In this document: one piece after another, positions 268 through 37,913 of the stretch
How the letters are laid out: every line of letters starts with the position of its first letter
How positions within the stretch are numbered: position 1 is the first letter of the stretch
IMG/VR virus record: IMGVR_UViG_3300045120_000006
Location: 1 to 44,091 of that record
Length of the DNA stretch: 44,091 nucleotides
From: a virus
Strand: one strand, 5' to 3'
Made by a program: the position numbers and the translations under genes
Notes under the pieces: generated by a model
Seen by the model: only the letters and a program-made list of their open reading frames with translations
What the model was told of the DNA's origin: nothing
The model's database searches: none

Positions 268-458
268 CAGAACTAGAACGACTAGAGTTAGTGCTGCGCC
301 GAGTGCACGCTGACTTAAACAAAACACCGCGCTTTGCTACATCTGACCACTTAGTAGTATTGCGTCAGATAATCCGCGAGTTGTTGATTGAGAACAACAA
401 ACAAGCGAAGCTAGATCAGTCAGCAAAAGCGGCTTCGCTCGCCGGGGAGATTGACTAA
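264..458 (+). CDS. Hypothetical small helical protein (64 aa)
   Basis: A 64-residue, mostly helical and charged protein beginning MTELERLELVLRRVHADLNK, with no family I recognise. Its start overlaps the upstream stop (ATGA) and its stop overlaps the start of the nuclease gene (TAATG at 456-460). It is therefore translationally coupled on both sides and is probably co-expressed with the downstream nuclease and Sak4-like ATPase. No function is assigned. Confidence 0.7.
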   Translation: MTELERLELVLRRVHADLNKTPRFATSDHLVVLRQIIRELLIENNKQAKLDQSAKAASLAGEID

Positions 459-1555
459 TGAAGATCACACCAACAGTAGATAAGACGCTTCCTTGGGTAG
501 ACTACTCCACACTCTCAGCTGTCAACACGTGTCCACGTTGGGGACTAATCCACAACTGGCACGGTAAACATCTAGCACATGGAGTTGAACGTGTCCTTCC
601 TCTTGAAGCTGGTCGTGCTATGCATGATGTGTTTGCTTGTGCACGCTTATTTGACCTTCTGACAGTGATAGTCAGCACAATCACCGATGGAGACACTGCC
701 AATGCAGCTTATACAAAGTATAAACGTGTCTGCGAGTATGCTGAGCGTTTGTTCAATACACCTACTGAGCCTAGGCGTTGGGAACAAGCGATGCGCTACT
801 TTGACACAGGTGAAGATGCTGAAACACGTTGTATGCAGATGGCACTCTCACTGCTAGAAACCAGTGGCTACCACGATGATCCACGTGACACTAAGCGCAC
901 ACAAGCTAATCTAGAGAGCGCCGCTATCTCATACATACAGCGTTACCCGCTAGGCCGCTTCATTCCTATCTGCAATGACGACGCAACGCAGATAGGCGTC
1001 GAAGTACCCTTCGACTTGACGCTGCATGACAAAGACGACAAACCTTATATACGCTTCATCGGTCGTGTTGACGGCATCTGCATCGACACACTGCGTCCTA
1101 GTGATAAGACGCCAGAGATACATGAGAACAAGACAGGTAGCCGTATAGACACCGTGTGGAGTAATAGCTTCGACACTAGTCATCAAGTAACCGGCTACTG
1201 TATCGCTGGTGAGTGTATGCTAGGTCTACCCATTCGTAACGTGACTATGTGGGGACTACAGCTACCTGTGCCTAAAGCTAGTAGCTACTCTGATGGAATA
1301 ATGCGCTACCCAACTACACGCAATGACGAGTCATTCGTTGAGTGGCAGCTATGGGTAGAGGACACACTACGCACGATAGACAAGTACGAAGGCGATCCTA
1401 CTAATGCACCTATGTTCACTCACTCCTGCTCACGCTACTTTCGTAGTTGCTCACTCATACCGCTGTGCACTGAGACTAGAGAGCGTCGTAAGCACATCTT
1501 CGACAACGAGATGCAAGTAGAACGCTGGTCGCCGCTCGATACAGATTTAGTCTAA
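458..1555 (+). CDS. PD-(D/E)XK nuclease, Cas4/AddB-like with Fe-S cysteines
   Basis: Predicted DNA exonuclease of the PD-(D/E)XK superfamily, 365 aa. Visible core motifs are GRVDG (Asp205), an ENK signature (Glu223, Lys225) and QVTGY (Gln243, Tyr247), matching the D, ExK and QxxxY motifs of RecB/Cas4-type nucleases. One N-terminal cysteine (Cys25, in NTCPRW) and three C-terminal cysteines (324, 331, 337) are arranged as in Fe-S-cluster nucleases such as AddB and Cas4. The gene overlaps its upstream neighbour by one base and precedes a Sak4-like ATPase and a probable ssDNA-binding protein. This is the usual setting of a phage exonuclease that makes single-stranded ends for annealing-type recombination. 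The nuclease fold is well supported; the Fe-S cluster is inferred from cysteine placement. Confidence 0.82.
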   Translation: MKITPTVDKTLPWVDYSTLSAVNTCPRWGLIHNWHGKHLAHGVERVLPLEAGRAMHDVFACARLFDLLTVIVSTITDGDTANAAYTKYKRVCEYAERLFNTPTEPRRWEQAMRYFDTGEDAETRCMQMALSLLETSGYHDDPRDTKRTQANLESAAISYIQRYPLGRFIPICNDDATQIGVEVPFDLTLHDKDDKPYIRFIGRVDGICIDTLRPSDKTPEIHENKTGSRIDTVWSNSFDTSHQVTGYCIAGECMLGLPIRNVTMWGLQLPVPKASSYSDGIMRYPTTRNDESFVEWQLWVEDTLRTIDKYEGDPTNAPMFTHSCSRYFRSCSLIPLCTETRERRKHIFDNEMQVERWSPLDTDLV

Positions 1556-1556
1556 C

Positions 1557-1584
1557 TTGCATGTGATCCTACATGTGTTATACT
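1557..1584 (+). promoter_or_regulatory. Promoter A of the four-copy early promoter family
   Basis: The -35 TTGCAT lies at 1557-1562 and the -10 TATACT at 1579-1584, with a 16-bp spacer and an extended -10 TGT before it. The same architecture and much of the spacer recur at 35716, 36901 and 42929. It sits immediately after the nuclease stop and about 24 bases before the GTG start of the Sak4-like gene. Confidence 0.75.
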
Positions 1585-1607
1585 ATGTGAAGAATAGGGA
1601 GACAGAA

Positions 1608-2384
1608 GTGGAAATCAATATCGAGCATCCGACAGATGCAGCTACACGTTTCTCATGTATACTATGGGGTGACAGCGGCAGCGGTAAGACTACACTCGCA
1701 GCTACAGCACCCGGTCGCAAGCTGTTCCTTATGCTAGACCCTGATGGTGATATGAGTATTCGCAACATGCCCAACTGGCATCGTATTAATCTTTCCAAGG
1801 AAAGCCCTGTCGATATTGTCAAGGAAGGTATGAAGCCCGATCCGTATACATTGTATACGCTTCTCGGTGACTTTGACACTCTTATCGTCGATAGCCTTAC
1901 CAAGTTCAGTGAACATGCACTTCAGTACGCTGTACGTGTCGCGCCTAAGTCTAGTATTGAGCAACCCGGACTTAACGGGTACGGACTGCGTAACATATGC
2001 GTCAGCTCTCTTATATCCAACGTACTGCGTATCACAGGTGCATTGAATAAGCATGTGATCTTCATTACGCACGAGAAGGATGCTGACAGAAACAATGATG
2101 GTGCCATTGTTAGCGTTGGTATGTTGCTTGGTGGTCAGCTGCCTAACATCACCAGCAAGGACATCTCTGAGGTGTGGAACCTTCGCGATCATGCTGGCAA
2201 ACGCTTTCTTGCTATACGTCCTGAACGCTTTAGAAGCCCGATGAAGTCGCGCATGTTCGACATGACAGGCAACACATCATTTGAGTGGCGTTATAATGCT
2301 AACACCAATGTAGGTCCGACTATAGCAGATTGGTGGCAGACGTACACAGGCAACGGACACAAAAAGCTGCCCGTTCCTAAGTAG
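1608..2384 (+). CDS. Sak4-like RecA-fold ATPase (single-strand annealing)
   Basis: ATP-binding protein of the RecA/AAA_24 type, 258 aa. A Walker A motif GDSGSGKTTL occupies residues 21-30 and a Walker B-like strand TLIVDSL lies near residue 90. Phage Sak4 proteins of this form act as recombinases or annealases that pair with an exonuclease and an SSB, both of which flank this gene. GTG 1608 was chosen because AGGGAG lies 6 bases upstream. An in-frame TTG at 1557 would extend the protein by 17 residues, but that stretch is the promoter itself. Leucine and isoleucine codons favour CTT and ATC/ATT more than in the preceding gene. A copy of the 15-bp palindrome lies inside the gene. Confidence 0.78.
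   Translation: MEINIEHPTDAATRFSCILWGDSGSGKTTLAATAPGRKLFLMLDPDGDMSIRNMPNWHRINLSKESPVDIVKEGMKPDPYTLYTLLGDFDTLIVDSLTKFSEHALQYAVRVAPKSSIEQPGLNGYGLRNICVSSLISNVLRITGALNKHVIFITHEKDADRNNDGAIVSVGMLLGGQLPNITSKDISEVWNLRDHAGKRFLAIRPERFRSPMKSRMFDMTGNTSFEWRYNANTNVGPTIADWWQTYTGNGHKKLPVPK
1844..1858. promoter_or_regulatory. Palindromic site 1 (GTATACATTGTATAC), inside Sak4-like gene
   Basis: Perfect 15-bp palindrome around a central T, extended to 17 bp by flanking C and G. It lies within coding sequence, where it encodes Tyr-Thr-Leu-Tyr-Thr, about 260 bp downstream of promoter A. It is one of 13 copies in the genome. Confidence 0.7.
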
Positions 2385-2496
2385 CTCCCCTCTACTAATA
2401 GCTATCCCGAATACACACTGAGCTACACTTAGCGGCTTGTAAGCTCTCTACTAGTGTGTATAACTTGAGTGCCGCTCAAACAGAAGGAGGCCCAAC
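2385..2496 (+). other. Structured leader before the SSB-like gene
   Basis: A 112-base gap. ATACACACT (2411-2419) is perfectly complementary to AGTGTGTAT (2453-2461), and GAGCT (2420-2424) can pair with AGCTC (2442-2446) inside it, giving an extended stem. No U-run follows, so it is not an obvious terminator. A strong GAAGGAGG ribosome-binding site ends the gap. It could be an mRNA stabiliser or a translational control element. Confidence 0.4.
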
Positions 2497-2904
2497 ATGG
2501 GTCTGTTGTCGTTCTCTAGTAACATTGCGGACGCTGAAGCACCTCCGCAACTACCTGCAGGTGAGTACAAGTGTGTATGCACTGCAGCTCAAGACAAGGT
2601 TGCTGCGTCATCTGGCAACCCTATGCTGACGTTGACACTACAAGTACCATCGTCAGAGTTCCCTGCTGACTTCGATCCCGGTGAAGGTGTCGATGCACAG
2701 ACCTTCACGCTGAACGTAGTCAGTCGTGACATTCCAGCTGATCGCTGGCGCATGAAGAACACCTGCAAAGCTTTCGGTGTTCCCATGTCCAGCAGCATTG
2801 ACCCGAACGATTTCGTAGGTCGTGAGGCTCGTTGTCGTGTCCGCATTGGACAGGACTTAGAGAAAAACCCACGTGCCGAAGTCGGTCAGGTGTTGCCACT
2901 CTAG
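2497..2904 (+). CDS. Probable ssDNA-binding protein (DUF669-like)
   Basis: 135-aa protein with the strand-rich layout of small phage single-stranded-DNA-binding proteins: LPAGEYKCVC near the N-terminus, a central LTLTLQV strand, FVGREARCRVRIG near residue 110, and a short C-terminal tail ending QVLPL. It resembles DUF669-type proteins that follow Sak4-like ATPases and polymerases in phage replication modules. Its very strong GAAGGAGG ribosome-binding site fits a protein needed in high copy to coat DNA. The assignment rests on general resemblance and context; I see no decisive motif. It could be another small replication accessory protein. Confidence 0.5.
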   Translation: MGLLSFSSNIADAEAPPQLPAGEYKCVCTAAQDKVAASSGNPMLTLTLQVPSSEFPADFDPGEGVDAQTFTLNVVSRDIPADRWRMKNTCKAFGVPMSSSIDPNDFVGREARCRVRIGQDLEKNPRAEVGQVLPL

Positions 2905-2988
2905 TTGTTCTGTGTTAGATGAACTGTGCTAGGTGGCAATAACGCCACCTAGCAACTTCCTGTAACTCTTGCAAGAGGAATTGCCAAC

Positions 2989-3264
2989 ATGGCAACAAGT
3001 CCAACTCCAATGAAGAAGGCGAAGCAAGTGAACCGTGCACCTCAGAAGCGTACCTTTCATTTCTTCATCCGTGTCGTTGATGAAGCTGGCAACGTCATCC
3101 CCGGTGCCAAGCTGAAGGTCGAGCGCATCATCACCGATGCACGTAAGGTGATTGAGTTCATGGATACTCCGAACTATTCCGAGCTAGGTCTGACCCGTGT
3201 CAAGCACGAGATCATCAGCACCAAGCGTGGCACAGAGGAAGACGGAGCTACGCAGGTTGGCTAG
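2989..3264 (+). CDS. Hypothetical small basic protein (91 aa)
   Basis: 91 aa, with a lysine- and arginine-rich N-terminus (MATSPTPMKKAKQVNRAPQK) followed by a strand-forming stretch FHFFIRVVDEAGNVIPGAKL. No known family recognised. AGAGGA upstream can serve as the ribosome-binding site for ATG 2989. Its place between the SSB-like gene and the helicase, and its basic start, would suit a nucleic-acid-binding role, but that is only inference. Confidence 0.65.
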   Translation: MATSPTPMKKAKQVNRAPQKRTFHFFIRVVDEAGNVIPGAKLKVERIITDARKVIEFMDTPNYSELGLTRVKHEIISTKRGTEEDGATQVG

Positions 3265-3420
3265 AATGTCTCATTAACACTAATGAGGTATTACTAACGA
3301 CTGGCTAACAAGCGTGGAGCAACGCCGCGTATGAAGTGAGTATCCCCACCCAGTGCGCGGCGTTGTCTATACATTGTATACAGAAACAGGGCGCGAAACC
3401 TAGCGCCAGAAAGTCACACC
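3265..3420 (+). other. Helicase leader with three hairpins and one palindromic site
   Basis: A 156-base gap dense in structure. CTCATTA/TAATGAG with loop ACAC lies at 3270-3287. A perfect 10-bp stem CAACGCCGCG/CGCGGCGTTG lies at 3320-3329 and 3356-3365 around a 26-base loop. One copy of the 15-bp palindrome is at 3367-3381, and GGCGC/GCGCC is at 3390-3407. No U-run follows the stems. It looks like a regulated 5' leader; protein-coding content is not apparent. Confidence 0.5.
3367..3381. promoter_or_regulatory. Palindromic site 2 (CTATACATTGTATAC)
   Basis: Intergenic copy, 14 of 15 positions matching the consensus, 39 bases before the helicase start and one base after the 10-bp stem of the leader. 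Confidence 0.7.
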
Positions 3421-4761
3421 ATGCAGCTAGATGCTGAACAACAGAATGCCATTGAGACATGCGCTGATTTAACAAAGAGACTAGTAGGCGTAACAGGCGA
3501 AGCTGGCACAGGTAAGACTACCATCATCAAGAATACCTGTGATCTACTTGCGTCTAAAGACATCTCCTTCACCATAGCAGCACCCACAGGCAAGGCAGCA
3601 CGTCGTATACGTGAGGCGACCGGCTACCCTGCACAAACAATCCACAAGCTGCTAGAGTTCAACCGTCCTGATGTTGACGAAGAAACAGGTGAAGCTACAT
3701 CTGTCAGTCAAGCATCACGCACACGCTTCAGGCCACTAGATGAACGCGTCGTTATTGTGGATGAGTATGCTATGGTATCCACAGGACTACACCGCGACTT
3801 GGTTAGTGCTATTCCTAGTGGTGGTTGCCTTCGTGTGTTCGGTGATATACGACAGCTTCCACCTATAGAGAACAACGAACTAGCCGATCCCACCTCCCCG
3901 TTCGCTCGTTGCTTAGAGATGCCACACACCTTCACACTCACTAACATCTACCGCCAAGCTGAAGGCAACGGTATCATTGAAGCTGGCAGACGTATCAACC
4001 GTGGGCAGTTCTTCAGTAGCAATGAAGATGTTAAAGTAATCACACACGATGCAGTGCTGCATAGTCTATACGGCAAGCTAGAAGACAAGTCAGTAGACTG
4101 GTGCATGTTGGATAATCAGATCATCTCGCCTGCACGTAAGTCTGACATCGGTACTATCAGGCTCAACAGTATACTGCAAACTCGCTTCAACCCTAACATG
4201 CCAGGTAGAGTAGAACTACCTCGCAACAAGTGGGAGACTAAGAACCGTGTCTTCGTTAGCATTGGTGACAAGGTTGTATGCAACACGAATAGCTACGACC
4301 TACGTGACTATTCTGAGCGCTTTACTGAATATAGCACTGATGGCGTCGGTATGCTTGGTAGCTTCATCGAGTGTCCAGATACAAAGCAAATGCTTAACGG
4401 TGAAGTGGGGCGTATCAATAGCATCGACGAGTACGGTGTGCTTGAGATAGACTTCGGTGATCGTGTAGTAGAACTACCGCCACGCATAGCTGACTACAAC
4501 ATGCGTAAGCGCTTCCACTATCACTACGATCCGCGTAAGGCTATCGAGCTAGCCTACGCTCTAACAACGCACAAGTGTCAAGGCTCACAGTATGACAACA
4601 TCTGCTACGTCATGGCATCGTGTGCGTTCTTTAACCTAAGTAGACCTAACTTCTACACAGGTCTAACGCGTGCTGCTAAACATGCTACTGTAGTATGCGA
4701 CCAACGCAGCTTTGCTACATCGCTGAAGTCAATGGGTTGGAAAAAGAGGAAGACGACATGA
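3421..4761 (+). CDS. SF1 DNA helicase, RecD/Dda-like
   Basis: 446-aa superfamily 1 helicase. Walker A GEAGTGKTT lies at residues 26-34, motif Ia is AAPTGKAARR, motif II is VDEYAMV, motif III is GDIRQLPPI, and the C-terminal core has THKCQGSQ and YTGLTRA. Such RecD/Dda-type enzymes unwind DNA 5' to 3' for phage replication or recombination. No DnaB-type replicative helicase or primase was recognised elsewhere, so this may be the main phage unwinding enzyme. The ribosome-binding site before ATG 3421 is weak. Its stop overlaps the polymerase start as ATGA, so the two are translationally coupled. The preceding leader is heavily structured and carries a palindromic site. Confidence 0.9.
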   Translation: MQLDAEQQNAIETCADLTKRLVGVTGEAGTGKTTIIKNTCDLLASKDISFTIAAPTGKAARRIREATGYPAQTIHKLLEFNRPDVDEETGEATSVSQASRTRFRPLDERVVIVDEYAMVSTGLHRDLVSAIPSGGCLRVFGDIRQLPPIENNELADPTSPFARCLEMPHTFTLTNIYRQAEGNGIIEAGRRINRGQFFSSNEDVKVITHDAVLHSLYGKLEDKSVDWCMLDNQIISPARKSDIGTIRLNSILQTRFNPNMPGRVELPRNKWETKNRVFVSIGDKVVCNTNSYDLRDYSERFTEYSTDGVGMLGSFIECPDTKQMLNGEVGRINSIDEYGVLEIDFGDRVVELPPRIADYNMRKRFHYHYDPRKAIELAYALTTHKCQGSQYDNICYVMASCAFFNLSRPNFYTGLTRAAKHATVVCDQRSFATSLKSMGWKKRKTT

Positions 4762-7289
4762 ACACTGCAGAACTGAAGGAGCGCTTCACCATACAAGCGC
4801 AGACAGCAGGGCTATCAGTTGAGTGTGCAATGGGTGGTACTATAGGTGCTACACTTGCTATCATAGCTGAAGCTCCAGGTCGCAATGAGATAGCTCAGGG
4901 CATACCACTCATAGGAGGTGCTGGCAACATACTGTGGAAAGCTATCCGCACATACTGCCCTGAGATAAAGCGTCACGAGTGCTACGTCACTAACGTAGTC
5001 AAGCGTCAAGTAGCATTCAGTGACTTCGACATGAAGCTTGCTAACCGTAAGCCAGTAGGCAAGCACGAGCTGACAGCGTGGCAGGAGTTGTTGTTGTGGG
5101 AACTAGATCAACTACCGAACCTGCAGCACGTACTGCTGCTAGGCAACTACGCAGTTGAAGCGATGCTAGGCAAGCGTGGTATTACTAACTGGCGTGGTAG
5201 CGTTATGGGGTGCAGGTCGCTCATTCGCCCTGTCACTGCAGTATGTACATACAACCCTGCCTTCTGCGCTCGTGATCCTATGGCGCATGTTGTGTTCGAC
5301 ATGGACATAGCTGACAAGCTGCGACCTGTCATCTTAGGAAAGTTCAAACCACATGAAGTCAACGTGCACATCAACCCTACAGCGAAAGAAGCACTTGATT
5401 ATATTCGTCATTGTGCCGCTTCGACTAGTCCAATCGGGTCAGATATTGAAGTCATCGCAAATGAGACAGCTTGTATCGGCCTTGCTGCCTCACCGCACGA
5501 AGCCATGTGCATTGCATTCCGCAATGAGCAAGAGAACGTATACAATGTATACGAAGAAAAAGCGATCCGTCAGAAGCTTCAACGCTTATACACGACGCCT
5601 AGCGTTCGAGTGGTGTGGCAGAATGGAGGATTCGATATGGCGTGGTTGTGGTTTAAGGACCACATTCGTACCCGCCCTGCATACAGCGACACGATGCTTG
5701 GTCATCATGTGCTATACCCAACAATGCCACACGACCTCGGCTTCATCGTCAAGCAGTACACAACACATCCGTTCTATAAGAATGAGAAAGACGAGTGGCG
5801 TCACACGGGAGGCATTGATAACTTCTGGATATATAACGGCAAAGACTGTGCGCTCACACTTGCGGCAAATGCTCATATCATCGCAGAGCTACGTGAACAG
5901 AAACTTGATAAGTTCTACTTTGAACACGTGATGCGCTTGCAAGCACACCTAGTGTTGATGACAGTCGGCGGTGTGCTGAATGACATGAAGATGCGTGAGC
6001 GTATGCTAGATCAGAACACCAAGGGTAACTTGTATGACGATCTGCAACGCAAGCTAGAAGCGTTCTATGAAGCATGTCGTGTAGCTGTAGGTGATAGCAA
6101 CTACACACCTAACCCTAACTCACCGAAGCAGATGGCTGAGTTGTACTTCAGTAAGCTGAAGCTAGTAGGCAGAGGTACAAGTACAGATGCTACCAACCGT
6201 GAGCTAATGCGTAAGCATCCACGCACTCCACCAGCTGCGCGTGCTGTGCTGAATGCAGTAGACGCGTACATAGAGGATGACAAGTTCTATTCAGTTTACG
6301 CCAGCGCGAAGCCTGACAACGATAGCAGGATGCGTTGCGACTACAGGCAAACCGGAGTACGTTCTGCGCCGGGGCGTCTGTCGTCTGCTCAAACTCTGTG
6401 GGGTAGTGGCGGCAATCTGCAGAACATTCCTGACCGCGCTAAGGAAATGTTCATTGCTGATGAGGGATGCTGCTTCATATACATCGACGGCTCGCAAGCT
6501 GAAGCGCGCGTCGTCGGCTGGCGTTACAACATCGCTACGTGGATTGAACAGTTCGAGCGTGCTAGGCGTGATGGCAGCTATGACTGCCATCGCGCTCTTG
6601 CCGCCGACATGTTCGACGTACCGTACAACGATGTTCCTACCTTCGACCGCTACCCACTCGACGCTATCGCCGCGAAGCGTGATGGCATCCAGTACAGCGC
6701 GGACTTGGCCGGGAAGCCCACAATCCGTTACATTGCGAAAAGGTGTCGTCATGGTCTTAACTACCGTATGATGCCTGACCGGCTCGCGCTAACAACTGGA
6801 CTGTCTCTTAGTACAGCAAGTGAGGCGTTTGTCAAGTACCACAAGCTCACTCCCGAACTGAAGCTAGGCTGGCAACAGGACTTGGAGCGGGTGAGACATG
6901 ACCGCGCTATCTATAACGCTTACGGTAGGCGTTACGTTCAATTAATTCCTGTGACTGAGGAAAGCACTGAGGCGATTGTGGCGTTCTACCCACAGTCCAC
7001 CATCGGGGATCACATATGCCGCGTCATATATAAGTGTCACGACGATGACAAGTGGCCCAAAGGCAAGGCGCGCATAGCTCTCAACACACATGATGGCCTG
7101 ATAGGCATAGCTCACAAGTCAGTAGCCAAGCAAGCACTACGCATCATGGTCAAACACGCAGAGACACCGCTGCTTATAAGTGGTAAGCAGCTAATCATAC
7201 CGGCTGAGTGTGCTATGTCAGTGGCCGATGTAGGTGGCGTACATCGTTGGTCTACGATCAAGAAGATGAAGCGGGCTGAGCTACTCTGA
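4758..7289 (+). CDS. Family A DNA polymerase with N-terminal UDG-like domain
   Basis: 843-aa replicative polymerase, started at ATG 4758 because it overlaps the helicase stop (ATGA). Residues about 25-190 resemble family 4/5 uracil-DNA glycosylase (EAPGRNE, GIPLIGGAGN, TNVVK). The family's second-motif HP(A/S) is here YNPAF, and the Fe-S cysteines are absent. The 3'-5' exonuclease follows with intact motifs: DIE (Asp229, Glu231), NGGFD (Asn289, Asp293) and Tyr359/Asp363. Polymerase motif A is DGSQAEAR (Asp577), motif B is RYIAKRCRHGLNY (Lys661, His665) and motif C is THDG (Asp779). His665 sits where E. coli Pol I has Phe762, and Gly780 replaces the usual Glu of HDE. SPO1 polymerase is a known phage example with a UDG-like extension. 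The gene ends convergently, overlapping the late operon by 9 bases. Confidence 0.9.
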   Translation: MNTAELKERFTIQAQTAGLSVECAMGGTIGATLAIIAEAPGRNEIAQGIPLIGGAGNILWKAIRTYCPEIKRHECYVTNVVKRQVAFSDFDMKLANRKPVGKHELTAWQELLLWELDQLPNLQHVLLLGNYAVEAMLGKRGITNWRGSVMGCRSLIRPVTAVCTYNPAFCARDPMAHVVFDMDIADKLRPVILGKFKPHEVNVHINPTAKEALDYIRHCAASTSPIGSDIEVIANETACIGLAASPHEAMCIAFRNEQENVYNVYEEKAIRQKLQRLYTTPSVRVVWQNGGFDMAWLWFKDHIRTRPAYSDTMLGHHVLYPTMPHDLGFIVKQYTTHPFYKNEKDEWRHTGGIDNFWIYNGKDCALTLAANAHIIAELREQKLDKFYFEHVMRLQAHLVLMTVGGVLNDMKMRERMLDQNTKGNLYDDLQRKLEAFYEACRVAVGDSNYTPNPNSPKQMAELYFSKLKLVGRGTSTDATNRELMRKHPRTPPAARAVLNAVDAYIEDDKFYSVYASAKPDNDSRMRCDYRQTGVRSAPGRLSSAQTLWGSGGNLQNIPDRAKEMFIADEGCCFIYIDGSQAEARVVGWRYNIATWIEQFERARRDGSYDCHRALAADMFDVPYNDVPTFDRYPLDAIAAKRDGIQYSADLAGKPTIRYIAKRCRHGLNYRMMPDRLALTTGLSLSTASEAFVKYHKLTPELKLGWQQDLERVRHDRAIYNAYGRRYVQLIPVTEESTEAIVAFYPQSTIGDHICRVIYKCHDDDKWPKGKARIALNTHDGLIGIAHKSVAKQALRIMVKHAETPLLISGKQLIIPAECAMSVADVGGVHRWSTIKKMKRAELL
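5538..5552. promoter_or_regulatory. Palindromic site 3 (GTATACAATGTATAC), inside polymerase gene
   Basis: Perfect 15-bp copy, 17 bp with flanking C and G, within the exonuclease-domain coding sequence, where it reads Val-Tyr-Asn-Val-Tyr. Confidence 0.7.
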
Positions 7290-10200
7290 CTGTGGTTGCT
7301 CTCCCGGCTGCGCGGGTGGCTGACTACCGAAGCTCTCGCGCATCATCTTGTCTGTTGTCTCTAGTGTGAACGCTCGACCTTGCAACCTGGGTGCCAGCTG
7401 CCGACCGAAGTTGGCATTCAGTTGTTGCTCTAAGTACTTCACAGCTAGGTGTTGCTGCTCCATATTGTCCTGCATCTTCCGCACAATCTGATTGCCACGT
7501 GCCTGTCGCTGATCCTGCGGCATGTTATACTGCACACTCACAGCTCTATTCTGCGCGCTCAGATCGCGGTATTGCTGCTTCAACTTGCCAAGCATACCAG
7601 TAGGGTTCTGATACTGCGTAACTACGTTAGCAACCTGCACTAGTATTTCATCAGTCATCGCTTGCTCAGGTACACCACCCACCTGCATAGCCAACTGCCG
7701 CTTACGCATTGCAGCTTTCCCTGTAGCATCATTCCGCATACCCACGATGTCCCGAATGTAATTGTTGTTAGTAGCAACATACTGCCAAGCAGGTGTAGTG
7801 ACACGGTAGCGCTCCTTGTTCTGCCACACTAGCGGCACATCGGGTGTGCTAGCTGTTGCCTTCTCTACCATCGCACCTGTTGCAGCTCTCAGTCCTGCAG
7901 TGAAGTCTTGCTGCTGCCTAAGCGTCTGCACACCATCGACGCTAGTAGCATACTTAGATGCATGTAGCAGTATGTCAGTGCTGCCAGCTATGTAACTACC
8001 CATAGCACCGAACAACCCCTGCATGATGGCAGTGGTGGAGTTACTAACTTGACCTAAGTTAGTAGCACTCTCAGCGTTAGGCCCTGCCTTGAACATGCTG
8101 CCACTAGTGCGGAAGATGTTGCCACCTCTAGTGTCTGCACCCTGTGGGTCTAACTTAATACCGGCTGTACCTAGCACAGCTTGCAACAGCGGCGGCATAG
8201 CTGGCATCAAGCTATTCAACATCAACAGTGGCAAGTCGTTCTTGATAGGTGTAGGTGTAGCACTAGCAGGTATCATGCCCATCTGCTGCATCATTGCTGC
8301 AGTGCCAGCAACAATTGGTATCAAGTCAGGTGGCATCGTGATGCTGTAGTAGAGCTTGCGATTGTAGGCAGGGTTCTCACCATTGGCCCATGCTTGTAGC
8401 AGTGTCGGCGTTGGTATGTCTATAATCCTGTAGCGATCATACTCAGGTCTACGCTGCCAGAACTCGCGGCGGCTTTCTTCATTCCAGTACGTGCGCCAGT
8501 AGAAGCCTGCACCTAGTGCAGTAGTCATCATGGCTAGTCGTGGTATGACGTAGTGGTATGTCTCCTTGCCGAACATGTTACGCACTAGATGATAAGCACC
8601 TAGCTTCGCCTGTGACAAGTATGGAAAGACAGCCTCTATATCCTTCATCGTCTTGTTAGCTGGCACTAGCGACATATCACCGCCGACAGTGCGTGTCTCA
8701 TACATCAGCCTAGTCAACTCATTCGGCGGTATCTTGTCAGCACCACCGAACTTCTTAGCTAGCAGGTAGTGGTTCTGCGTGTAGTATGGCCGACTACCGC
8801 TCAAATAGACAGCATCCAGTAAGCCCTTGTAGAATGAGTATGCAGTGCGTACAGACTTCGGCATCTGATCGCCTATCATTGCATACGCATCGCGCACATG
8901 TGCAGGGTTGTTGATCGACCTGATACCACGCGTAGCATTGCCACGCATCATCTTCAGCGTAGCTAGGTTCTCAGTCCACGCTGCTATGTCAACAGCCTTC
9001 TTCACCATTGCATTGAATGTAGTGTCACCTACCATACGCCTAAACATGCCGAACTCTGACTGCGCCTTCAACGTGTCAGCCATCTTCTGTGCGCCGAAGT
9101 GTGCCATGAACTCGGTAGTAGCAGCCAATATATGATAAGGCATAGCAGCTAGCACAGTAGGATCAGGTATCAACCCACCGATCCACTTAGCTATAGGTGC
9201 AGGTAGCATCCTGTGCATTGCATACGACAGCGTACCATATGCTCTATCGTTAGGACGAAAGAGCATCTGCATTATGATGTTATACAGTGCACCCTTCACA
9301 GCGAACACAGGATTACCTGAGCCAGTGGTGAAGTACTTGAACCAATTAGTAGTAGTCTGTACATTCTGCATCAACCCGTTCATCTTCACAGGGTCATGCC
9401 GCAGTGCTAATGCTAACTCCGCATCACCCATCTTCCACATACGGAGCTTACCATCATTCCACTCTGGCACGAACCGCGGATCGTTGAGCAGCTTATTGAT
9501 CTTCGGATTGTTATGTGCAATCTCTGCAGGTGTCCAGTGTTTGCCTGTATATGGATTAGGTTCGATAGCCATATAACCGTTCTTGATGAAGTCTGACGGT
9601 GTGCCATCGGGATTAGTACGCAACCACGTGACTGCTTGGTTACGTGAGTCTTGGTGTGCTAAGCTGCGATAGGCGTTCTCACTGTACTGCCTAGTGACAG
9701 TACGCGGATTGAGCGCAGACGTTATACGTGTCTCTGCACTGATGTTAGCCTTAGCTGATGGCACCTTAAGTTCAAACTCGCGTATAGGACTTTCATTAGT
9801 CAGCGCACCACCAGTGCCCTTGACACCCTCACTCTGTGCGCGCTTCACACTTGAAACCACACTACGCCGTACACGCTCTAATCCTGTAGTGCCACCTAAC
9901 GGGTCGCTCATTATAGGTGTGTAGTAAGGATCAAGACGACGTAGTTCATTTGCGTACTTCTGCGTCATACGACCGCTACGCACTTCAAGCTGCAAGATTG
10001 TATCAGCCCATGCTTTGTGTGCATCTCTTACACGTATGATGCTAGGGTCTGTGCTAGTCTCATATGCGTTTGCTATCTTGTTGACCTCGCTGCGTGGTAG
10101 CTCAGGCAGCACAGGTCTAGCACTCTCATCGTGGTCATCACGTATACGCTTCAAGTCACTGGCAGCTTGCTTGTATGCATCACTTTTCTTGTCGCGTATG

Positions 10201-11540
10201 CTAGCAAGTTGATCGACTAGTGCCTGTTCTATCCTGTCATACCGCGCCTTGATGGTAGACATAATCATAGCACCTTCAACAGCGCGACCGTTGACAGGTG
10301 TAGCTGCATCTATAGCAGCGAACAAATCGTGTGTGACTACTTCAGCTGACTGCCTAACTGCGTCTTCAAGCACTGGACCTGTGTTGCTTCTGAACACAGC
10401 TTCATGCGTTCTAAAGTCATCTGGCCTATGTTCTGCTAGTCGCTGCAGTAGTGCTGACTGGTCATCGAACACTTGACCACGCGCTCTAGTCATCGTACTC
10501 CGCGTAACACCTGTGTCTTCAATTGCACTAGGTGGATTGAGCTGCTGTTCAGCACCAGCTGTAATAATAGACTCGCCAGTTTTAGGCTCAGGTGCTATAC
10601 GCACATCTACTGAAGGTGTCTTCTCTATCGTCTTAGCTAGATCACTAGTAGCAGCTTGCAGTGCAGCCTTCTGACCACCGTGCATAGCAGCTACGAATGC
10701 AGCCATACCAGCTACAGCTGCAGCGCTAGTAACTAATGTGCCAACACCTGCATCATCTTCAGTCTTAGGTGTGAATGCTGTATCCTTACCCTGTGCATAA
10801 CGCACAGCTTGATCTAACCCAACACCAACTGCGGCGTTGGCTGCTACGTTGGCTGGCGTATATGGTATAGTGACAGGTGATGTTAGCTCAACAGCTTTGA
10901 TAGCTGTCCTGCTAATAGGGTTGTTAAGCAGTGACCTAGTAACGATGTTCTTAGCTGCAGCTTGACCTATCTTACCCGGTATACCAGCAGGTCCACCTAC
11001 CAACGCACCACCTAGTATCTCAGCTGCGCTGTCTGTCCAATCACGCTGTTCCTCTGTACGCTGATCGCCAGTTAGACCACGCGCTACATCTTGTACTTTA
11101 GAGAATGCACCGATGCCACCCTTCAACTGCGTCATGCTGAAGTCTTCAAATTGCTTACTGTGCTGATACTCCTTCAGCTTGTCGTATATCTCATCCTCAC
11201 CCATACCGGGATTAGCTTGTGCTATCTGACCAGCAACCTGATTGAGATGATCGGTGATGTTCTTCTGTGCACCTTCAATCTGCATACTCTTACCGAACTC
11301 ATCCATGAACGACTTATCAGTGCCCATAGAATTGTACAGTGCTTGACCACCTGCATAGATAGTCTCAGGCAGTGCCATCCATGCAGGGTATGCAGACATA
11401 GCTCCGCTAGCTATATCGCCACCATAGCGTGCTAACGTACCACGCTCGGCAGGTGCTTGCTGTTGTACTGCAGGTGTAGGATCATAGCCGTATGTCTGCT
11501 TGAACTCATCAGCAGTCATATAGCCATCTTCGTTAGGCAT
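7281..11540 (-). CDS. Large internal virion / DNA ejection protein (1419 aa)
   Basis: The largest gene, last of the late operon. Glycine- and alanine-rich hydrophobic segments lie near residues 165-190 and 265-285. A middle region from about 725 (WFKYFTTGSGNPVFAVKGA onward to about 1000) resembles the LPD38-type domain found in large phage and mobile-element proteins. The C-terminal region is glutamine-rich and probably coiled coil. Size, position after the tail and lytic-domain genes, and this composition fit the biggest core protein of T7-like podoviruses, which is ejected with the DNA and helps form a trans-envelope channel. No enzymatic motif was identified. The stop overlaps the convergent polymerase gene. 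Confidence 0.6.
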   Translation of the reverse strand: MPNEDGYMTADEFKQTYGYDPTPAVQQQAPAERGTLARYGGDIASGAMSAYPAWMALPETIYAGGQALYNSMGTDKSFMDEFGKSMQIEGAQKNITDHLNQVAGQIAQANPGMGEDEIYDKLKEYQHSKQFEDFSMTQLKGGIGAFSKVQDVARGLTGDQRTEEQRDWTDSAAEILGGALVGGPAGIPGKIGQAAAKNIVTRSLLNNPISRTAIKAVELTSPVTIPYTPANVAANAAVGVGLDQAVRYAQGKDTAFTPKTEDDAGVGTLVTSAAAVAGMAAFVAAMHGGQKAALQAATSDLAKTIEKTPSVDVRIAPEPKTGESIITAGAEQQLNPPSAIEDTGVTRSTMTRARGQVFDDQSALLQRLAEHRPDDFRTHEAVFRSNTGPVLEDAVRQSAEVVTHDLFAAIDAATPVNGRAVEGAMIMSTIKARYDRIEQALVDQLASIRDKKSDAYKQAASDLKRIRDDHDESARPVLPELPRSEVNKIANAYETSTDPSIIRVRDAHKAWADTILQLEVRSGRMTQKYANELRRLDPYYTPIMSDPLGGTTGLERVRRSVVSSVKRAQSEGVKGTGGALTNESPIREFELKVPSAKANISAETRITSALNPRTVTRQYSENAYRSLAHQDSRNQAVTWLRTNPDGTPSDFIKNGYMAIEPNPYTGKHWTPAEIAHNNPKINKLLNDPRFVPEWNDGKLRMWKMGDAELALALRHDPVKMNGLMQNVQTTTNWFKYFTTGSGNPVFAVKGALYNIIMQMLFRPNDRAYGTLSYAMHRMLPAPIAKWIGGLIPDPTVLAAMPYHILAATTEFMAHFGAQKMADTLKAQSEFGMFRRMVGDTTFNAMVKKAVDIAAWTENLATLKMMRGNATRGIRSINNPAHVRDAYAMIGDQMPKSVRTAYSFYKGLLDAVYLSGSRPYYTQNHYLLAKKFGGADKIPPNELTRLMYETRTVGGDMSLVPANKTMKDIEAVFPYLSQAKLGAYHLVRNMFGKETYHYVIPRLAMMTTALGAGFYWRTYWNEESRREFWQRRPEYDRYRIIDIPTPTLLQAWANGENPAYNRKLYYSITMPPDLIPIVAGTAAMMQQMGMIPASATPTPIKNDLPLLMLNSLMPAMPPLLQAVLGTAGIKLDPQGADTRGGNIFRTSGSMFKAGPNAESATNLGQVSNSTTAIMQGLFGAMGSYIAGSTDILLHASKYATSVDGVQTLRQQQDFTAGLRAATGAMVEKATASTPDVPLVWQNKERYRVTTPAWQYVATNNNYIRDIVGMRNDATGKAAMRKRQLAMQVGGVPEQAMTDEILVQVANVVTQYQNPTGMLGKLKQQYRDLSAQNRAVSVQYNMPQDQRQARGNQIVRKMQDNMEQQHLAVKYLEQQLNANFGRQLAPRLQGRAFTLETTDKMMRESFGSQPPAQPGEQPQSE

Positions 11541-11542
11541 GA

Positions 11543-14461
11543 CTACTCCATGATCTTAAACAACGGCTGACCATCGGGGCCTATCTGCACATCTATATTA
11601 CCCTGCGGTGTGCTACCGTCGCCAGCACTATTAGGCATAGGCAGCGGTAGTGCATTGCCCTTTGGTTGTATATTCAACTTAGGCTGTGGCACGATGATAG
11701 GTGTACCCCCTGGCATCTGTGTAGGTACACGCTTAGCAGGTACAGCCTCCTGTTGCACAGGTTTAGGTGCACGTGTGAACAGTGCTTTGATCCAATCAAG
11801 TGCGCCACTCATATCCTTCTCTGGCAGACCACTAACGTCTTGTCCGAATGACGAGTCGTACTGTGGTTGATTACCTTGATCGTACATAGCAGCAGCTACA
11901 CTAGCAGCTGGCACAGGTAGTGGTGCTTGTTGTGGCGGCGGCTCTTGTCCTTGTCTACTCTCTATCAAGCGCTGCACCTGCGGCGGTATATTGTATGAAG
12001 GCTTGCCCATGATCTTGCTCTTGGCATAATCAACGGCATCGCCAACCATATCGCCAGCACCTTGTACAACGTCAGTCATAGGATCGACGCTGCGTATGTC
12101 ACGTGCTACACCACCAGCAGCATTCAGTACACCGGGAACCGCTTGTGCTACATCACCAGCCATGTAACCAGCACCAGCTGCTACATCTGTCATTGGGTCA
12201 ACGCTGCGTATATCGCGCGCAACCTCACCTGCCTTGTCCAACACATTGCCGAACGGTATAGTTGTCATGCCGGGAGGCAGATCACGCAGACTACGACTAG
12301 GCCCACCCATGCTCTGTGTATCAGGTCTAGTCGGCGGCATAGGCACAGGCTCACCAGCTGACAACCGTGAGCTAGTGTCATTAGTCTCATTCATGTCATC
12401 TATAGTATAACCACTATCGGTCTGCACCTGTTGCGGAGTAGGCGCAGGTGTAGCTTGTGTAGGTTGCTCAACAGTACTAGCTGTCTGTGGTGTAGGTTGT
12501 GCAGCTGCAGCAGTAGCTTCAGGTGGTATAGGCGCTGTAGTAGGCACATCATATCCTGCAGCGCTCTGGCTCTCGGGCACCGTTCTACGCTGTTGCGTCT
12601 TAGGTGCTAGGTCCATACCAGCTAACAACCCTGACACAGCTTCAGCTGGCACACCTTGCTTACCTACAACTGGCTGATTGCCAGCTATAGTAGCGAGCGG
12701 CGCAGATGTAGGTGCACCATACGTCGCCAGCTTATCACCAGTGAACGGACGCAATTCCTCACTAGGCTTGCGTGGTGCAGTAGGAGGTGGCGCTGCAGCA
12801 GGTGTAGCTGCTTGCTGTTCTGGCTCTTGCTCACGCTTCTTCCAAGCAGCGAGAGCTTCAGGACCAAACTCATAATGTCCGAAGTCCGCGCTTTTCCAAT
12901 CACCACCACTGCGTATCTGCAGATCGCTGAGTATCTTACGCATCACCTCTGTATTCTGTGGGTCTTGCACCCATTTAGTGAACGCTGTATCGACGCGGTT
13001 CTTGCTGCGTTGGTTAACATCTAAACCAGTACCAAAGCCGTGTTGGCTAGGATGATTAGTGCCAGCTATGTTTCTCTTGACATAACCAATCAGACTACTA
13101 ACAGGTGCACCAGCTTCATACAATCGCTGTACAAACTCATTGGCTATAGGTGCAACATCTTTATGCATGACAAACGCACGACCACTGCCATCTGGATATG
13201 GTATGCTAACCATAGCGTCTTCATCACCGAACCTGTAACCAGTGCGCGGGCTAGCGAAGTTAGCGCCCTGCGGCACACGCCCTTCAGGTATAGACGCTGG
13301 CGGTATAGGTGCTTGTGCTGTCTTCTCCGGTACACCTTGTGGACCGTCTAATACACGCCGTGCTGCAGAATGCCACGGACCTACTTTCTTAGTAGCTAGC
13401 TCATCGAACCACTGTCCAACTGTTGTATTCAGCGGTATGCCATTGTTAGCCATAGTACCAGCAGCATCTACCTGCCTACCATTAGGTAGTGTAGTAGGCA
13501 TCAACACCTTCACCAGTGGCGTGTCTCTATTCACCTGCAACGCTTTGGCTACTCTAGGTGCATTACCAGCACCGAGCATGTGTGCCATGTAGTAGTAGGG
13601 CATATCCTCTGCACCACTACCCAACTTCTGACCTGTGAACTTCTCAATGTTCTGCCTGTTGCGATCAATGTTAGCAGCTAATGCGTGTCCCATCTTATAG
13701 GGGTCTTGTAAATCCTGTGGTGATAAGCCATGTTCACGCGCTAACTCGCGTGTGAACTGAAATATACCACTAGCACCACCTGCAGACTTAGGATTAGTAC
13801 CTAGATTGTAGCCACCTGCGTTCTCTAAGCCTAGCGTCATCAAGATAGTGCCACGTGGTAGCTTGTACTTAACCTCATCAGCATCCCATGATGCAATCAA
13901 CTTAGGGTCAAGCTGTCTAAAGCCTAGCGGTGTACCTCGTGTGGTGCTAGGTGCGCGTGGTGCATTGTAGGCTGGCCTCTGCTGTCGGCTCTGTGCGCTC
14001 AGAGTGACAGTCTCATCAGGACCAGCCTGTGCGAAAGACGCTAGTGGATCATCACCTGCATTGTTCTGTGAGAACTTATCAGTGCTAGGTCCAAGTGGTG
14101 TAGGGTTAGTACCTAATGACCCTTGTGGTGCAGGTGTAGCAGGTGCAGCGGGAGGTGCGTTAGGAACAGTAGCACCACTAGGTGCACCACCACTACCAAG
14201 CGGCGCAGCGGGCGTAGTAGTGAATGTGGGATACTTACCACCACCTCTATCACCGGGAGCACCGTAGTCATCATACAATCCGCGTGTGTACTTGTCACGC
14301 AGACCTAGCATCTCTTTCATAAACTCTTGCTGGCGTAGTCTGTCTTCTCTACGCTGTGCAAGTTGTATGTATAGACGCGATAAAGCATCATTAGCTGCAG
14401 CCTCGCGTGCAGCAATCTGCGTGGTATAGTCAATTATACCAGTAGGCATCGCCTTTGCCAT
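11543..14461 (-). CDS. Internal virion protein with transglycosylase and M15 peptidase domains
   Basis: 972-aa protein with two apparent cell-wall-cleaving domains. Residues about 184-315 look like a lytic transglycosylase/lysozyme-like fold, with candidate catalytic Glu213 in GLENAGGYN followed by GGASGIFQF. Residues about 410-540 match an M15-type metallopeptidase: SQHGFGTGLD (His474, Asp481) and GHYEF (His529, Glu531), the usual zinc and catalytic pattern. The N-terminus is helical, and the rest is proline-, alanine- and glutamine-rich and probably disordered. Its place between two other large internal proteins suggests that it travels in the virion and opens the peptidoglycan during DNA entry. 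It could also serve in lysis, since no separate conventional endolysin is evident. Confidence 0.75.
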   Translation of the reverse strand: MAKAMPTGIIDYTTQIAAREAAANDALSRLYIQLAQRREDRLRQQEFMKEMLGLRDKYTRGLYDDYGAPGDRGGGKYPTFTTTPAAPLGSGGAPSGATVPNAPPAAPATPAPQGSLGTNPTPLGPSTDKFSQNNAGDDPLASFAQAGPDETVTLSAQSRQQRPAYNAPRAPSTTRGTPLGFRQLDPKLIASWDADEVKYKLPRGTILMTLGLENAGGYNLGTNPKSAGGASGIFQFTRELAREHGLSPQDLQDPYKMGHALAANIDRNRQNIEKFTGQKLGSGAEDMPYYYMAHMLGAGNAPRVAKALQVNRDTPLVKVLMPTTLPNGRQVDAAGTMANNGIPLNTTVGQWFDELATKKVGPWHSAARRVLDGPQGVPEKTAQAPIPPASIPEGRVPQGANFASPRTGYRFGDEDAMVSIPYPDGSGRAFVMHKDVAPIANEFVQRLYEAGAPVSSLIGYVKRNIAGTNHPSQHGFGTGLDVNQRSKNRVDTAFTKWVQDPQNTEVMRKILSDLQIRSGGDWKSADFGHYEFGPEALAAWKKREQEPEQQAATPAAAPPPTAPRKPSEELRPFTGDKLATYGAPTSAPLATIAGNQPVVGKQGVPAEAVSGLLAGMDLAPKTQQRRTVPESQSAAGYDVPTTAPIPPEATAAAAQPTPQTASTVEQPTQATPAPTPQQVQTDSGYTIDDMNETNDTSSRLSAGEPVPMPPTRPDTQSMGGPSRSLRDLPPGMTTIPFGNVLDKAGEVARDIRSVDPMTDVAAGAGYMAGDVAQAVPGVLNAAGGVARDIRSVDPMTDVVQGAGDMVGDAVDYAKSKIMGKPSYNIPPQVQRLIESRQGQEPPPQQAPLPVPAASVAAAMYDQGNQPQYDSSFGQDVSGLPEKDMSGALDWIKALFTRAPKPVQQEAVPAKRVPTQMPGGTPIIVPQPKLNIQPKGNALPLPMPNSAGDGSTPQGNIDVQIGPDGQPLFKIME

Positions 14462-36866: not shown

Positions 36867-36900
36867 CGTACATATCCACAGTGTTCTCAATTAGTGGCAC

Positions 36901-36928
36901 TTGCATGTGATTTTAGATGTGGTATAAT
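36901..36928 (+). promoter_or_regulatory. Promoter C of the four-copy early family
   Basis: TTGCAT at 36901-36906, a 16-bp spacer, a consensus TATAAT at 36923-36928 and extended -10 TGG. It is the best match of the family and leads the membrane peptide, DUF932 and PEP-CTERM genes. Confidence 0.82.
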
Positions 36929-36957
36929 GATAGCTGTAAATGAGAGGGATACAACCG

Positions 36958-37059
36958 ATGATAGTCCTAATCGAGAAATTGGCTATTGCCACAATGCACC
37001 TAATAGCTGGAACGCTACTAGGTGCTTTCGTCGTTCTTATAATCGTATACAATGTATAA
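36958..37059 (+). CDS. 33-aa single-span membrane peptide
   Basis: A short reading frame just after promoter C, with GAGGGA eight bases before its ATG. It begins MIVLIEKLAIATMHLIAGTL, and the remainder is hydrophobic, ending VYNV, so it is one membrane span with a short N-terminal polar part. The last codons and the TAA stop lie inside palindromic site 9. A second 33-aa membrane peptide occurs at 38810. Function unknown; small phage membrane peptides often affect envelope or superinfection, but nothing specific is shown here. Confidence 0.5.
   Translation: MIVLIEKLAIATMHLIAGTLLGAFVVLIIVYNV
37045..37059. promoter_or_regulatory. Palindromic site 9 (GTATACAATGTATAA)
   Basis: Exact core, 11 bases before the DUF932 gene start. 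It also supplies the last codons and the stop of the 33-aa membrane peptide. A bound protein here would sit right at the ribosome-binding-site region. Confidence 0.7.
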
Positions 37060-37070
37060 GGAGAGCTAAC

Positions 37071-37913
37071 ATGCTACCAGCCCTCAGTACTAATGAGATA
37101 GAAGGCATAGACACTGCACGTGTCTTTACTGATGTAGCTACAATGCAAGATCGCTGTCCTGCATTGTTTGCTACATCTGCACATCCGAAGATGAGTGCGC
37201 GTTATAGCTTCACCAACACTTATGACATCTTGCTGCACATTCACAATAAGGGCTTCAAGGTTAGCAGTGTGCAAGGTGGGCATAAGCGCTATGGCGCAGT
37301 GATGGTGCGTATGCGTCACGATAGCTACGATAAGCGTGATGAAGCGCCTGAGATAGTTGTGCTTGATAGTCACGACGGTACTAAGCCTATCAAGCTAATG
37401 CTCGGTATGATTAAGTTCATCTGCATGAATGGTATGGTAGCAGGTGATATGCTCTATGCACGTAGCTTCAGACATCTAGCTCCTGATCTAATGGAGCAGA
37501 TCATGTTGGAGCTACAAGACATCGACGGCCATATAGATAAGTTGAAGAAACGCGTAGAGGTGATGAAGTCATACAAGACAAACATCGGTGAGCGCATTGC
37601 ACTAGCACACGCAGCTATTGCTGTGCGCTTCGGTGATGATCGTAGTGCTTCATTCATAGCTGATATGCGTCAGCGCATGTTGGAGGTTAGACGCAGTGAC
37701 GATGATAGCGACGATCTCTACACTGTGATGAACGTGATACAAGAGAATGTGTTGCGAGGTGGCATGATGTATAGCATCAACAACACGGTGAGGCGTGTGT
37801 CCGCCATCAGCAACGTCAACCGCAACGTCAGCATCAATCAAGCACTGTGGAAGGCCGCAGATGCTATAGTTGTTAAACAAGTTATCGGTGGTGCGATGGC
37901 TTCTGCCGATTAG
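37071..37913 (+). CDS. DUF932-like phage protein
   Basis: 280 aa. The central stretch EIVVLDSHDGTKPIKLMLGM followed by IKFICMNGMVAG matches the conserved core of the DUF932 family (a LNSHDGS...CSNGLVVG-like block), preceded by YGAVMVRMRH. The family is widespread in phages and plasmids and its biochemical role is not established. ATG 37071 was chosen because AAGGAGAG lies five bases upstream; the longer in-frame extension runs back over promoter C and the small membrane peptide. It sits between two palindromic sites and directly ahead of the PEP-CTERM gene. Confidence 0.75.
   Translation: MLPALSTNEIEGIDTARVFTDVATMQDRCPALFATSAHPKMSARYSFTNTYDILLHIHNKGFKVSSVQGGHKRYGAVMVRMRHDSYDKRDEAPEIVVLDSHDGTKPIKLMLGMIKFICMNGMVAGDMLYARSFRHLAPDLMEQIMLELQDIDGHIDKLKKRVEVMKSYKTNIGERIALAHAAIAVRFGDDRSASFIADMRQRMLEVRRSDDDSDDLYTVMNVIQENVLRGGMMYSINNTVRRVSAISNVNRNVSINQALWKAADAIVVKQVIGGAMASAD

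What the first reader, a model, noticed from the sequence alone, without database searches (positions are those of the whole stretch)
4758..7289. DNA polymerase I fused to a degenerate uracil-DNA glycosylase-like domain
The N-terminal 190 residues follow the family 4/5 UDG pattern but lack the Fe-S cysteines, and the HP(A/S) motif is YNPAF. A UDG-like module attached to the replicase suggests uracil sensing or a purely structural role. It could also point to unusual bases in the genome, as in SPO1, whose polymerase carries a similar extension.
Basis: partly seen in the sequence, partly recalled or inferred. Interest (0 to 1): 0.68.

Follow-up and report, generated by a model that had tools for sequence, protein, structure and literature searches.

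The report
Phage polymerase with retired uracil glycosylase
A soil phage's DNA-copying enzyme carries, as its front part, a uracil-removing repair enzyme that has lost its cutting residue but kept its base-holding pocket, which suggests that the copying enzyme uses it to grip or read DNA rather than to repair it.

Summary
Window 4758-7289(+) encodes an 843-aa family A DNA polymerase whose residues ~25-195 are a UDG-superfamily domain (Pfam E=2.7e-16; AlphaFold pLDDT 93.7, best solved match UdgX, TM 0.77). The four Fe-S cysteines are absent and the motif-2 His is Asn. Such fusions are known (SPO1; PaBG, PMC7412058; phiLo polymerase, PDB 9QHS).

'Degenerate' needs qualification. In the window's clade (64 relatives, 44-97% identity) the chemistry residue (H155 to N) and the uracil-stacking residue (F54 to L) changed, but the remaining pocket (E38, G41, E44, N79) is intact in 59/64 and far more conserved than the rest of the domain. 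In ~15 other lineages that lost the His, the pocket has decayed. Tth UDGa H155S loses >3 orders of rate but keeps Km (PMC5387724).

Best reading: a non-excising, DNA- and probably base-binding module of the replicase. An unusual-base genome is not supported: no thymidylate-synthase, QueC or PurZ gene in this or 49 related genomes. Elsewhere, though, UDG-polymerase fusions often sit beside base-modification genes, and in SPO1-like and Serbin-like phages the uracil-recognition Asn is lost instead. New variant of a known kind; activity untested.

The parts
4758..7289 (+). UDG-like / 3'-5' exonuclease / family A DNA polymerase fusion, 843 aa
4830..5342 (+). UDG-superfamily domain (residues ~25-195); Pfam core 4842-5279
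4866..4880 (+). UDG motif 1, AEAPG (residues 37-41); E38 = Tth E41
   Evidence: residue roles from PMC5387724
4908..4910 (+). L51 in place of the uracil-stacking F54
4989..5003 (+). TNVVK (residues 78-82); N79 = Tth N80, the uracil N3/O4 contact, retained
5253..5264 (+). UDG motif 2, NPAF (residues 166-169); N166 in place of catalytic H155
5463..5864 (+). 3'-5' exonuclease domain (residues 236-369 by Pfam); D229, E231, D293, Y359, D363 invariant
6036..7166 (+). family A polymerase domain (residues 427-803 by Pfam); D577, R657, K661, Y669, H778-D779 conserved
3421..4761 (+). RecD/Dda-like SF1 helicase, overlapping the polymerase start by ATGA
2497..2904 (+). DUF669 protein (replication module)
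1557..2384 (+). AAA_24 / Sak4-like ATPase (replication-recombination module)
458..1555 (+). putative Cas4-like exonuclease: position matches the annotated Cas4/exonuclease of relatives; no Pfam, PHROG or NCBIfam hit itself

Best explanation
Residues 1-~200 are a family-4-derived UDG domain that has become a non-excising accessory module of the phage replicase. SHOWN by sequence or prediction: UDG fold; intact exonuclease and polymerase catalytic residues; loss of Fe-S cysteines, F54 and H155; conservation of the DNA-contact residues and of the remaining base pocket; vertical co-inheritance with the polymerase. INFERRED: the domain binds the DNA next to the polymerase and keeps the enzyme on it, the way the glycosylase D4 is thought to do for the vaccinia polymerase, and its pocket still accepts a base, most likely uracil, without cutting it out, because the leaving-group histidine is gone while the recognition residues stay. 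Whether base binding makes the polymerase pause at template uracil or only adds grip is open.
For: Fold. Missing catalytic residue: N166 at the H155 position in 24/24 clade I; N in 35/40 clade II, others E or S. Published kinetics: Tth UDGa H155S k2 falls from 2.3e-1 to 7.2e-5 s-1 with Km almost unchanged, i.e. binding survives (PMC5387724). Kept pocket: E38, A39, E44 invariant in 64/64, N79 in 62/64; pocket entropy 0.20 bits against 1.56 for the rest of the domain, p=1.6e-4. Internal control: in the 29 clade III sequences without the His, pocket columns have relaxed to the domain average (1.53 vs 1.24, p=0.83) while DNA-contact columns stay conserved (0.59, p=0.03). So the fused domain is kept even when the pocket decays (a non-catalytic role), and clades I+II keep the pocket for something beyond that. 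The His is absent from 16 separate subtrees of the polymerase tree. Purifying selection: pN/pS 0.22 in the UDG part vs 0.16 in the polymerase part. UDG and polymerase trees agree on the clades. Precedent: vaccinia D4, a UDG, is half of the polymerase processivity factor (PMC5682278).
Against: No biochemistry exists for this protein. Motif-2 Asn occurs in active Mug enzymes (NPSGLS, own knowledge) and families 2 and 6 are active without the His (PMC5387724), so slow excision is possible. Loss of the stacking Phe would also weaken uracil binding (F54A lowers k2/Km about 17-fold). Conserved E/G/P residues of motif 1 may be kept partly for folding. Entropy tests are not corrected for phylogeny and clades I+II are one lineage.
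Confidence: 0.5

Rival explanations
1. Pure structural or DNA-clamping domain: the UDG fold only shapes or holds the polymerase, the pocket binds no base, and residue conservation reflects folding.
For: His and often the whole pocket have been lost in many lineages while the domain stays; the pocket is destroyed in Triscuit, Shrew and Zuko; DNA-contact Arg and VRG-loop residues outlast the pocket.
Against: In clades I+II the pocket residues, including side chains with no obvious folding role (E44, N79), are nearly invariant although the rest of the domain has diverged to about 50% identity.
Confidence: 0.25
2. Active glycosylase with altered chemistry or specificity, using N166 in a Mug/TDG-like way, coupled to the replicase for repair during synthesis.
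For: Asn at motif 2 as in Mug; conserved motif 1 Glu, N79 and R172; families 2 and 6 work without the His (PMC5387724).
Against: Mug uses a motif-1 Asn to place the water; here that position is Ala (A39), the Asn equivalent to Tth N89 is Ser (S88) in the window and the stacking Phe is lost. An abasic site made in the template ahead of the replicase would be harmful.
Confidence: 0.15
3. The module marks a phage with an unusual base (hmU-type or other) in its genome, and the pocket was changed to tolerate that base.
For: In the wider family, UDG-polymerases stand near thymidylate-synthase homologues, often with dCMP deaminase (SPO1, LysYB1, Serbin, PMBT14, P744, Zuko, Shrew, Triscuit, ctfzr933) or 7-deazaguanine genes (StAshley, BSTP5); PDB 9QHS is titled 'phiLo family-A DNA polymerase with modified template'.
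Against: 0/50 genomes of the window's family have PF00303, QueC or PurZ; the N4/N6 methyltransferase gene of clade III (26/27) is absent from all 23 clade I+II genomes; no modification gene recognised among the window ORFs examined. SPO1-like and Serbin-like phages changed N80, not H155.
Confidence: 0.08

Closest known systems
SPO1 gp31 DNA polymerase and SPO1-like relatives
   Same: N-terminal UDG-superfamily domain without Fe-S cysteines, followed by 3'-5' exonuclease and family A polymerase
   Different: SPO1 keeps the motif-2 His (HPN) but has lost the uracil-recognition Asn (Ser instead); the window has the reverse. SPO1 has a dUMP hydroxymethylase gene nearby; the window phage has none.
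PaBG / 'Lupandier' jumbo phage DNA polymerase I (PMC7412058)
   Different: Jumbo phage; residue state of the pocket not compared here
phiLo family-A DNA polymerase, PDB 9QHS (released 2026-03-25)
   Same: Solved polymerase whose residues 9-153 match the fused-UDG profile (E=3.1e-11; TMq 0.60)
   Different: 1142 aa; solved with a modified template; no paper found, pocket residues not compared
Family 4 UDG (UDGa, TIGR00758) and UdgX
   Same: Fold, motif 1 EAPG, E44, N79, P167, R172
   Different: No Fe-S cluster cysteines, His replaced by Asn, Phe by Leu, no UdgX R-loop His; scores 60 bits against a cut-off of 125 (TIGR00758) and 44 against 190 (UdgX model)
Vaccinia D4 (UDG) in the polymerase processivity factor (PMC5682278)
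   Same: A UDG used as a DNA-binding part of a viral replicase
   Different: Separate subunit joined through A20 to a family B polymerase, and still an active glycosylase
UDG-PolA of other ~40-50 kb phages (Microcystis Mel-JY34, ctMlz233; 'clade III' here)
   Same: Same architecture, no Fe-S cysteines
   Different: 25-29% identity; most keep F54 and the motif-2 His; an N4/N6 methyltransferase gene is present in 26/27 genomes searched, usually near the polymerase

Membership tests
UDG superfamily (Pfam PF03167) | Significant match to the family profile above curated cut-off | tested here: met
   60.4 bits vs 24.3 cut-off, E=2.7e-16
UDG superfamily (Pfam PF03167) | UDG alpha/beta/alpha fold | tested here: met
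   AF2 pLDDT 93.7; Foldseek to UdgX, 4zbx, 1ui0, TMq 0.72-0.77
Family 4 UDG (UDGa) | Four Fe-S cluster cysteines | tested here: not met
   None of the four positions is Cys in the window; pattern absent in clades I-III
Family 4 UDG (UDGa) | Motif 2 HP(A/S) with catalytic His | tested here: not met
   N166-P-A; invariant Asn in clade I
Family 4 UDG (UDGa) | Motif 1 GE(A/G)PG and uracil-contact Asn (TN) | tested here: met
   AEAPG, T78-N79; E38 64/64, N79 62/64 in clades I+II
Family 4 UDG (UDGa) | NCBIfam TIGR00758 cut-off | tested here: not met
   60.3 bits vs 125.3
Family 4 UDG (UDGa) | Uracil excision activity | not testable with these tools
   needs an enzyme assay
UdgX | KRRIH R-loop with nucleophilic His, GEQPG motif | tested here: not met
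   No such loop; motif is AEAPG; UdgX model 44 bits vs 190
Mug/TDG (family 2) | GINPG motif 1 with catalytic Asn; NPSGLS/MPSSSA motif 2 | tested here: not met
   AEAPG and NPAFCAR; only the motif-2 Asn is shared
Family A DNA polymerase with proofreading exonuclease | Motifs A, B, C and exonuclease acidic residues | tested here: met
   D577, R657, K661, Y669, H778-D779 and D229, E231, D293, Y359, D363 conserved
Modified-base phage (hmdU, 7-deazaguanine, aminoadenine) | Synthesis genes (TS homologue, QueC, PurZ) | tested here: not met
   0/50 genomes including the window
Replicase processivity/uracil-sensing module (function) | DNA binding and effect on synthesis | not testable with these tools
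   needs biochemistry

The most novel reading that the evidence does not exclude
A lineage of uncultivated phages has turned a polymerase-fused uracil-DNA glycosylase into a uracil reader: the pocket still takes up a template uracil but cannot cut it, so the replicase stalls or signals there. This would be a bacterial-virus counterpart, on an unrelated fold, of the read-ahead uracil pocket of archaeal family B polymerases.
Probability: 0.22. Interest if true: 0.78.

Novelty: new variant of a known kind. Interest (0 to 1): 0.5.

Why it matters
UDG-polymerase fusions have been noted one by one without a stated function. The comparison here points to a testable general rule: the fold is kept in the replicase while its chemistry is lost again and again, and by different routes (catalytic His in the window's lineage, uracil-recognition Asn in SPO1-like and Serbin-like phages with a thymidylate-synthase homologue). 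That would make the domain a replicase part rather than a repair enzyme. If the base pocket is a reader, it is a new way for a replicase to sense uracil.

Tried and rejected
Considered and rejected: chance match or mis-called start (profile, fold and >100 relatives rule this out); intact family 4 or UdgX membership (cysteines, His, R-loop and NCBIfam cut-offs fail); DpoZ/aminoadenine polymerase (20 bits vs 500; no PurZ); random decay (pocket entropy). Led nowhere: literature on 9QHS/phiLo; papers on a UDG-polymerase function (PMC8775771 and PMC11348598 do not mention it); genome contigs gave only 8 contigs labelled as bacteria or archaea, at most 38% identical. Foldseek with the full-length model returns mainly polymerases and does not place the UDG domain.
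Full report
WHAT IS THERE. The window is a 44,091-base virus record. From 458 to 7289 it carries a plus-strand replication module: a Cas4-like protein, a Sak4-like ATPase, a DUF669 protein, a small gene, a RecD/Dda-like helicase and the polymerase. The polymerase start (ATG 4758) overlaps the helicase stop. The order Cas4-like, Sak4, DUF669, helicase, UDG-polymerase is kept in relatives: each gene is found in 17/17 clade I loci and in 17-18 of 18 clade II loci tested. The protein has 843 residues: UDG (29-174 by Pfam), exonuclease (236-369), polymerase (427-803). Exonuclease and polymerase catalytic residues are conserved across the aligned relatives.

FOLD. AlphaFold2 with an 80-sequence alignment gives pLDDT 92.3 and pTM 0.88 for the whole protein, and 93.7 and 0.91 for residues 1-199. 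Foldseek places the latter among family 4 UDGs and UdgX (6ioc E=2.3e-13, TMq 0.77), then the phiLo polymerase (9QHS), TDG and Mug. A profile of the fused domain hits solved family 4 enzymes at E down to 4.5e-34.

RELATIVES. Scans of viral contigs gave 147 distinct aligned proteins: clade I (24, above 70% identity to the window), clade II (40, 44-50%) and a wider group called clade III (83, 24-29%). Clades I+II are one lineage in both polymerase and UDG trees (support 1.0 and 0.99). Pairwise identities of the two parts correlate at 0.94. All 50 genomes searched hold the fused UDG as their only full UDG match.

THE POCKET. Published work on T. thermophilus UDGa defines the pocket as E41, G42, E47, F54, N80 and H155, with N89 placing the water (PMC5387724). 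The equivalents in the window are E38, A39, E44, L51, N79, N166 and S88. In clades I+II: Glu at 38 in 64/64, Glu at 44 in 64/64, Asn at 79 in 62/64; but Leu/Met at 51 in 64/64, and no His at 166 (Asn in 59/64). In that paper H155S reduces k2 more than a thousandfold with little change of Km, whereas E41Q showed no binding to U-containing DNA. The window lineage thus lost the residue whose loss spares binding. The F54 change would weaken stacking, so the pocket is altered, not simply disarmed.

DECAY OR CONSTRAINT. On the polymerase tree the motif-2 His is absent from 16 separate subtrees (15 changes by parsimony). In the clade III sequences that lost it, the rest of the pocket is as variable as any part of the domain (entropy 1.53 vs 1.24 bits, p=0.83), whereas residues aligned with DNA contacts stay conserved (0.59, p=0.03). 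In clades I+II pocket entropy is 0.20 against 1.56 (p=1.6e-4). These p-values ignore phylogeny. The contrast still says two things: the fold is kept for something other than excision, and clades I+II keep the pocket for something more. Codon comparison shows purifying selection on the UDG part (pN/pS 0.22 vs 0.16 for the polymerase part; synonymous sites are near saturation, so the ratios are rough).

UNUSUAL BASES. In the window and 49 relatives there is no thymidylate-synthase homologue, no QueC and no PurZ, and one dUTPase. Records may be incomplete and an unknown pathway cannot be excluded. The wider family looks different: 14 of 23 annotated records with a fused UDG domain have a PF00303 homologue, in many of them directly beside the polymerase with dCMP deaminase, thymidylate kinase or dUTPase (Serbin, PMBT14, Zuko, Shrew, P744); StAshley and BSTP5 have 7-deazaguanine genes beside it; 26 of 27 clade III genomes have an N4/N6 methyltransferase gene, usually near the polymerase, against 0 of 23 in clades I+II. 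The last contrast may rest on a single evolutionary event. In SPO1, LysYB1, Exiguobacterium phage 132, Serbin, PMBT14 and P744 the uracil-recognition Asn is replaced by Ser, Gly or Pro, and in Triscuit, Shrew and Zuko the pocket is gone; in StAshley, vir526, ctLwi270 and ctfzr933 the cysteines, the recognition Asn and the His are intact. ctfzr933 has both TS-type genes and an intact pocket, so the rule is not strict.

ANOTHER FUSION. Pseudomonas phage nickie and Rhizobium phage B1VFA carry a UDG-superfamily domain at the C-terminus of DnaE, an unrelated replicase (Pfam E=3.6e-12 and 3.1e-11). Fusion to replicases has thus happened at least twice.

HOW IT PROBABLY WORKS. Shown: architecture, fold, residue states, constraint. 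Inferred: the domain binds DNA beside the polymerase and adds grip, as vaccinia D4 is thought to do (PMC5682278), and the conserved pocket holds a base, most likely uracil, without removing it. Non-excising I hold at about 0.75, DNA-binding in the replicase at about 0.6, uracil reading at about 0.25-0.3.

NOVELTY. The fusion is known (SPO1; PaBG, PMC7412058; phiLo structure). What appears new, within the papers I could search, is the large uncultivated lineage with a fixed, constrained and non-canonical pocket (L51/N166), the repeated loss of the His on a tree, the two routes of inactivation, and the frequent presence of base-modification genes in other branches.

Noticed in passing
window 37957-38697 (+): A 246-aa phage protein with a signal-peptide-like start and a C-terminal 'PLPSAIWAFGSALTGFVLVTRRRKRS' that looks like a PEP-CTERM sorting tail; NCBIfam gives only sub-threshold PEP-CTERM-type matches and it is found in only 1 of 17 clade I loci.
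   Followed up: partly
L214:2127-5519 and L215:2085-5453: DnaE (Pol III alpha) of Pseudomonas phage nickie and Rhizobium phage B1VFA carry a C-terminal UDG-superfamily domain.
   Followed up: partly
G023-G048 (clade III genomes): 26 of 27 clade III genomes have an N4/N6 DNA methyltransferase gene, usually near the UDG-polymerase; 0 of 23 in clades I+II.
   Followed up: partly
L042, L046, L047: In Caulobacter phage Kuura, Vibrio phage VS-ABTNL-3 and ctLwi270 the UDG-(exo)-polymerase is split into separate ORFs, in the first two with one or more genes between the pieces.
   Followed up: no
L048, L209, L210, L219: Conserved cassette of a TS homologue, dCMP deaminase or hmase-type gene, UDG-PolA, Cas4 and Sak4 across distant phages, with an unnamed ~260-aa protein (Serbin gp51, PMBT14 gp48) in the position annotated 'pyrimidine hmase synthase' in P744.
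   Followed up: no
window 36894-37913 (+): DUF932 / phrog_12094 protein of unknown function in the early region; no match in the sampled flanks of relatives.
   Followed up: no
window 42295-43020 (+): HNH-type homing-endonuclease-like gene (HNH_3 just below cut-off), matched near the replication module in 11/17 clade I loci.
   Followed up: no
window 7281-11540 and 11543-14461 (-): Two very large virion-type proteins (1419 and 972 aa; the second with a weak M15 peptidase match), the first without any significant Pfam or PHROG match.
   Followed up: no
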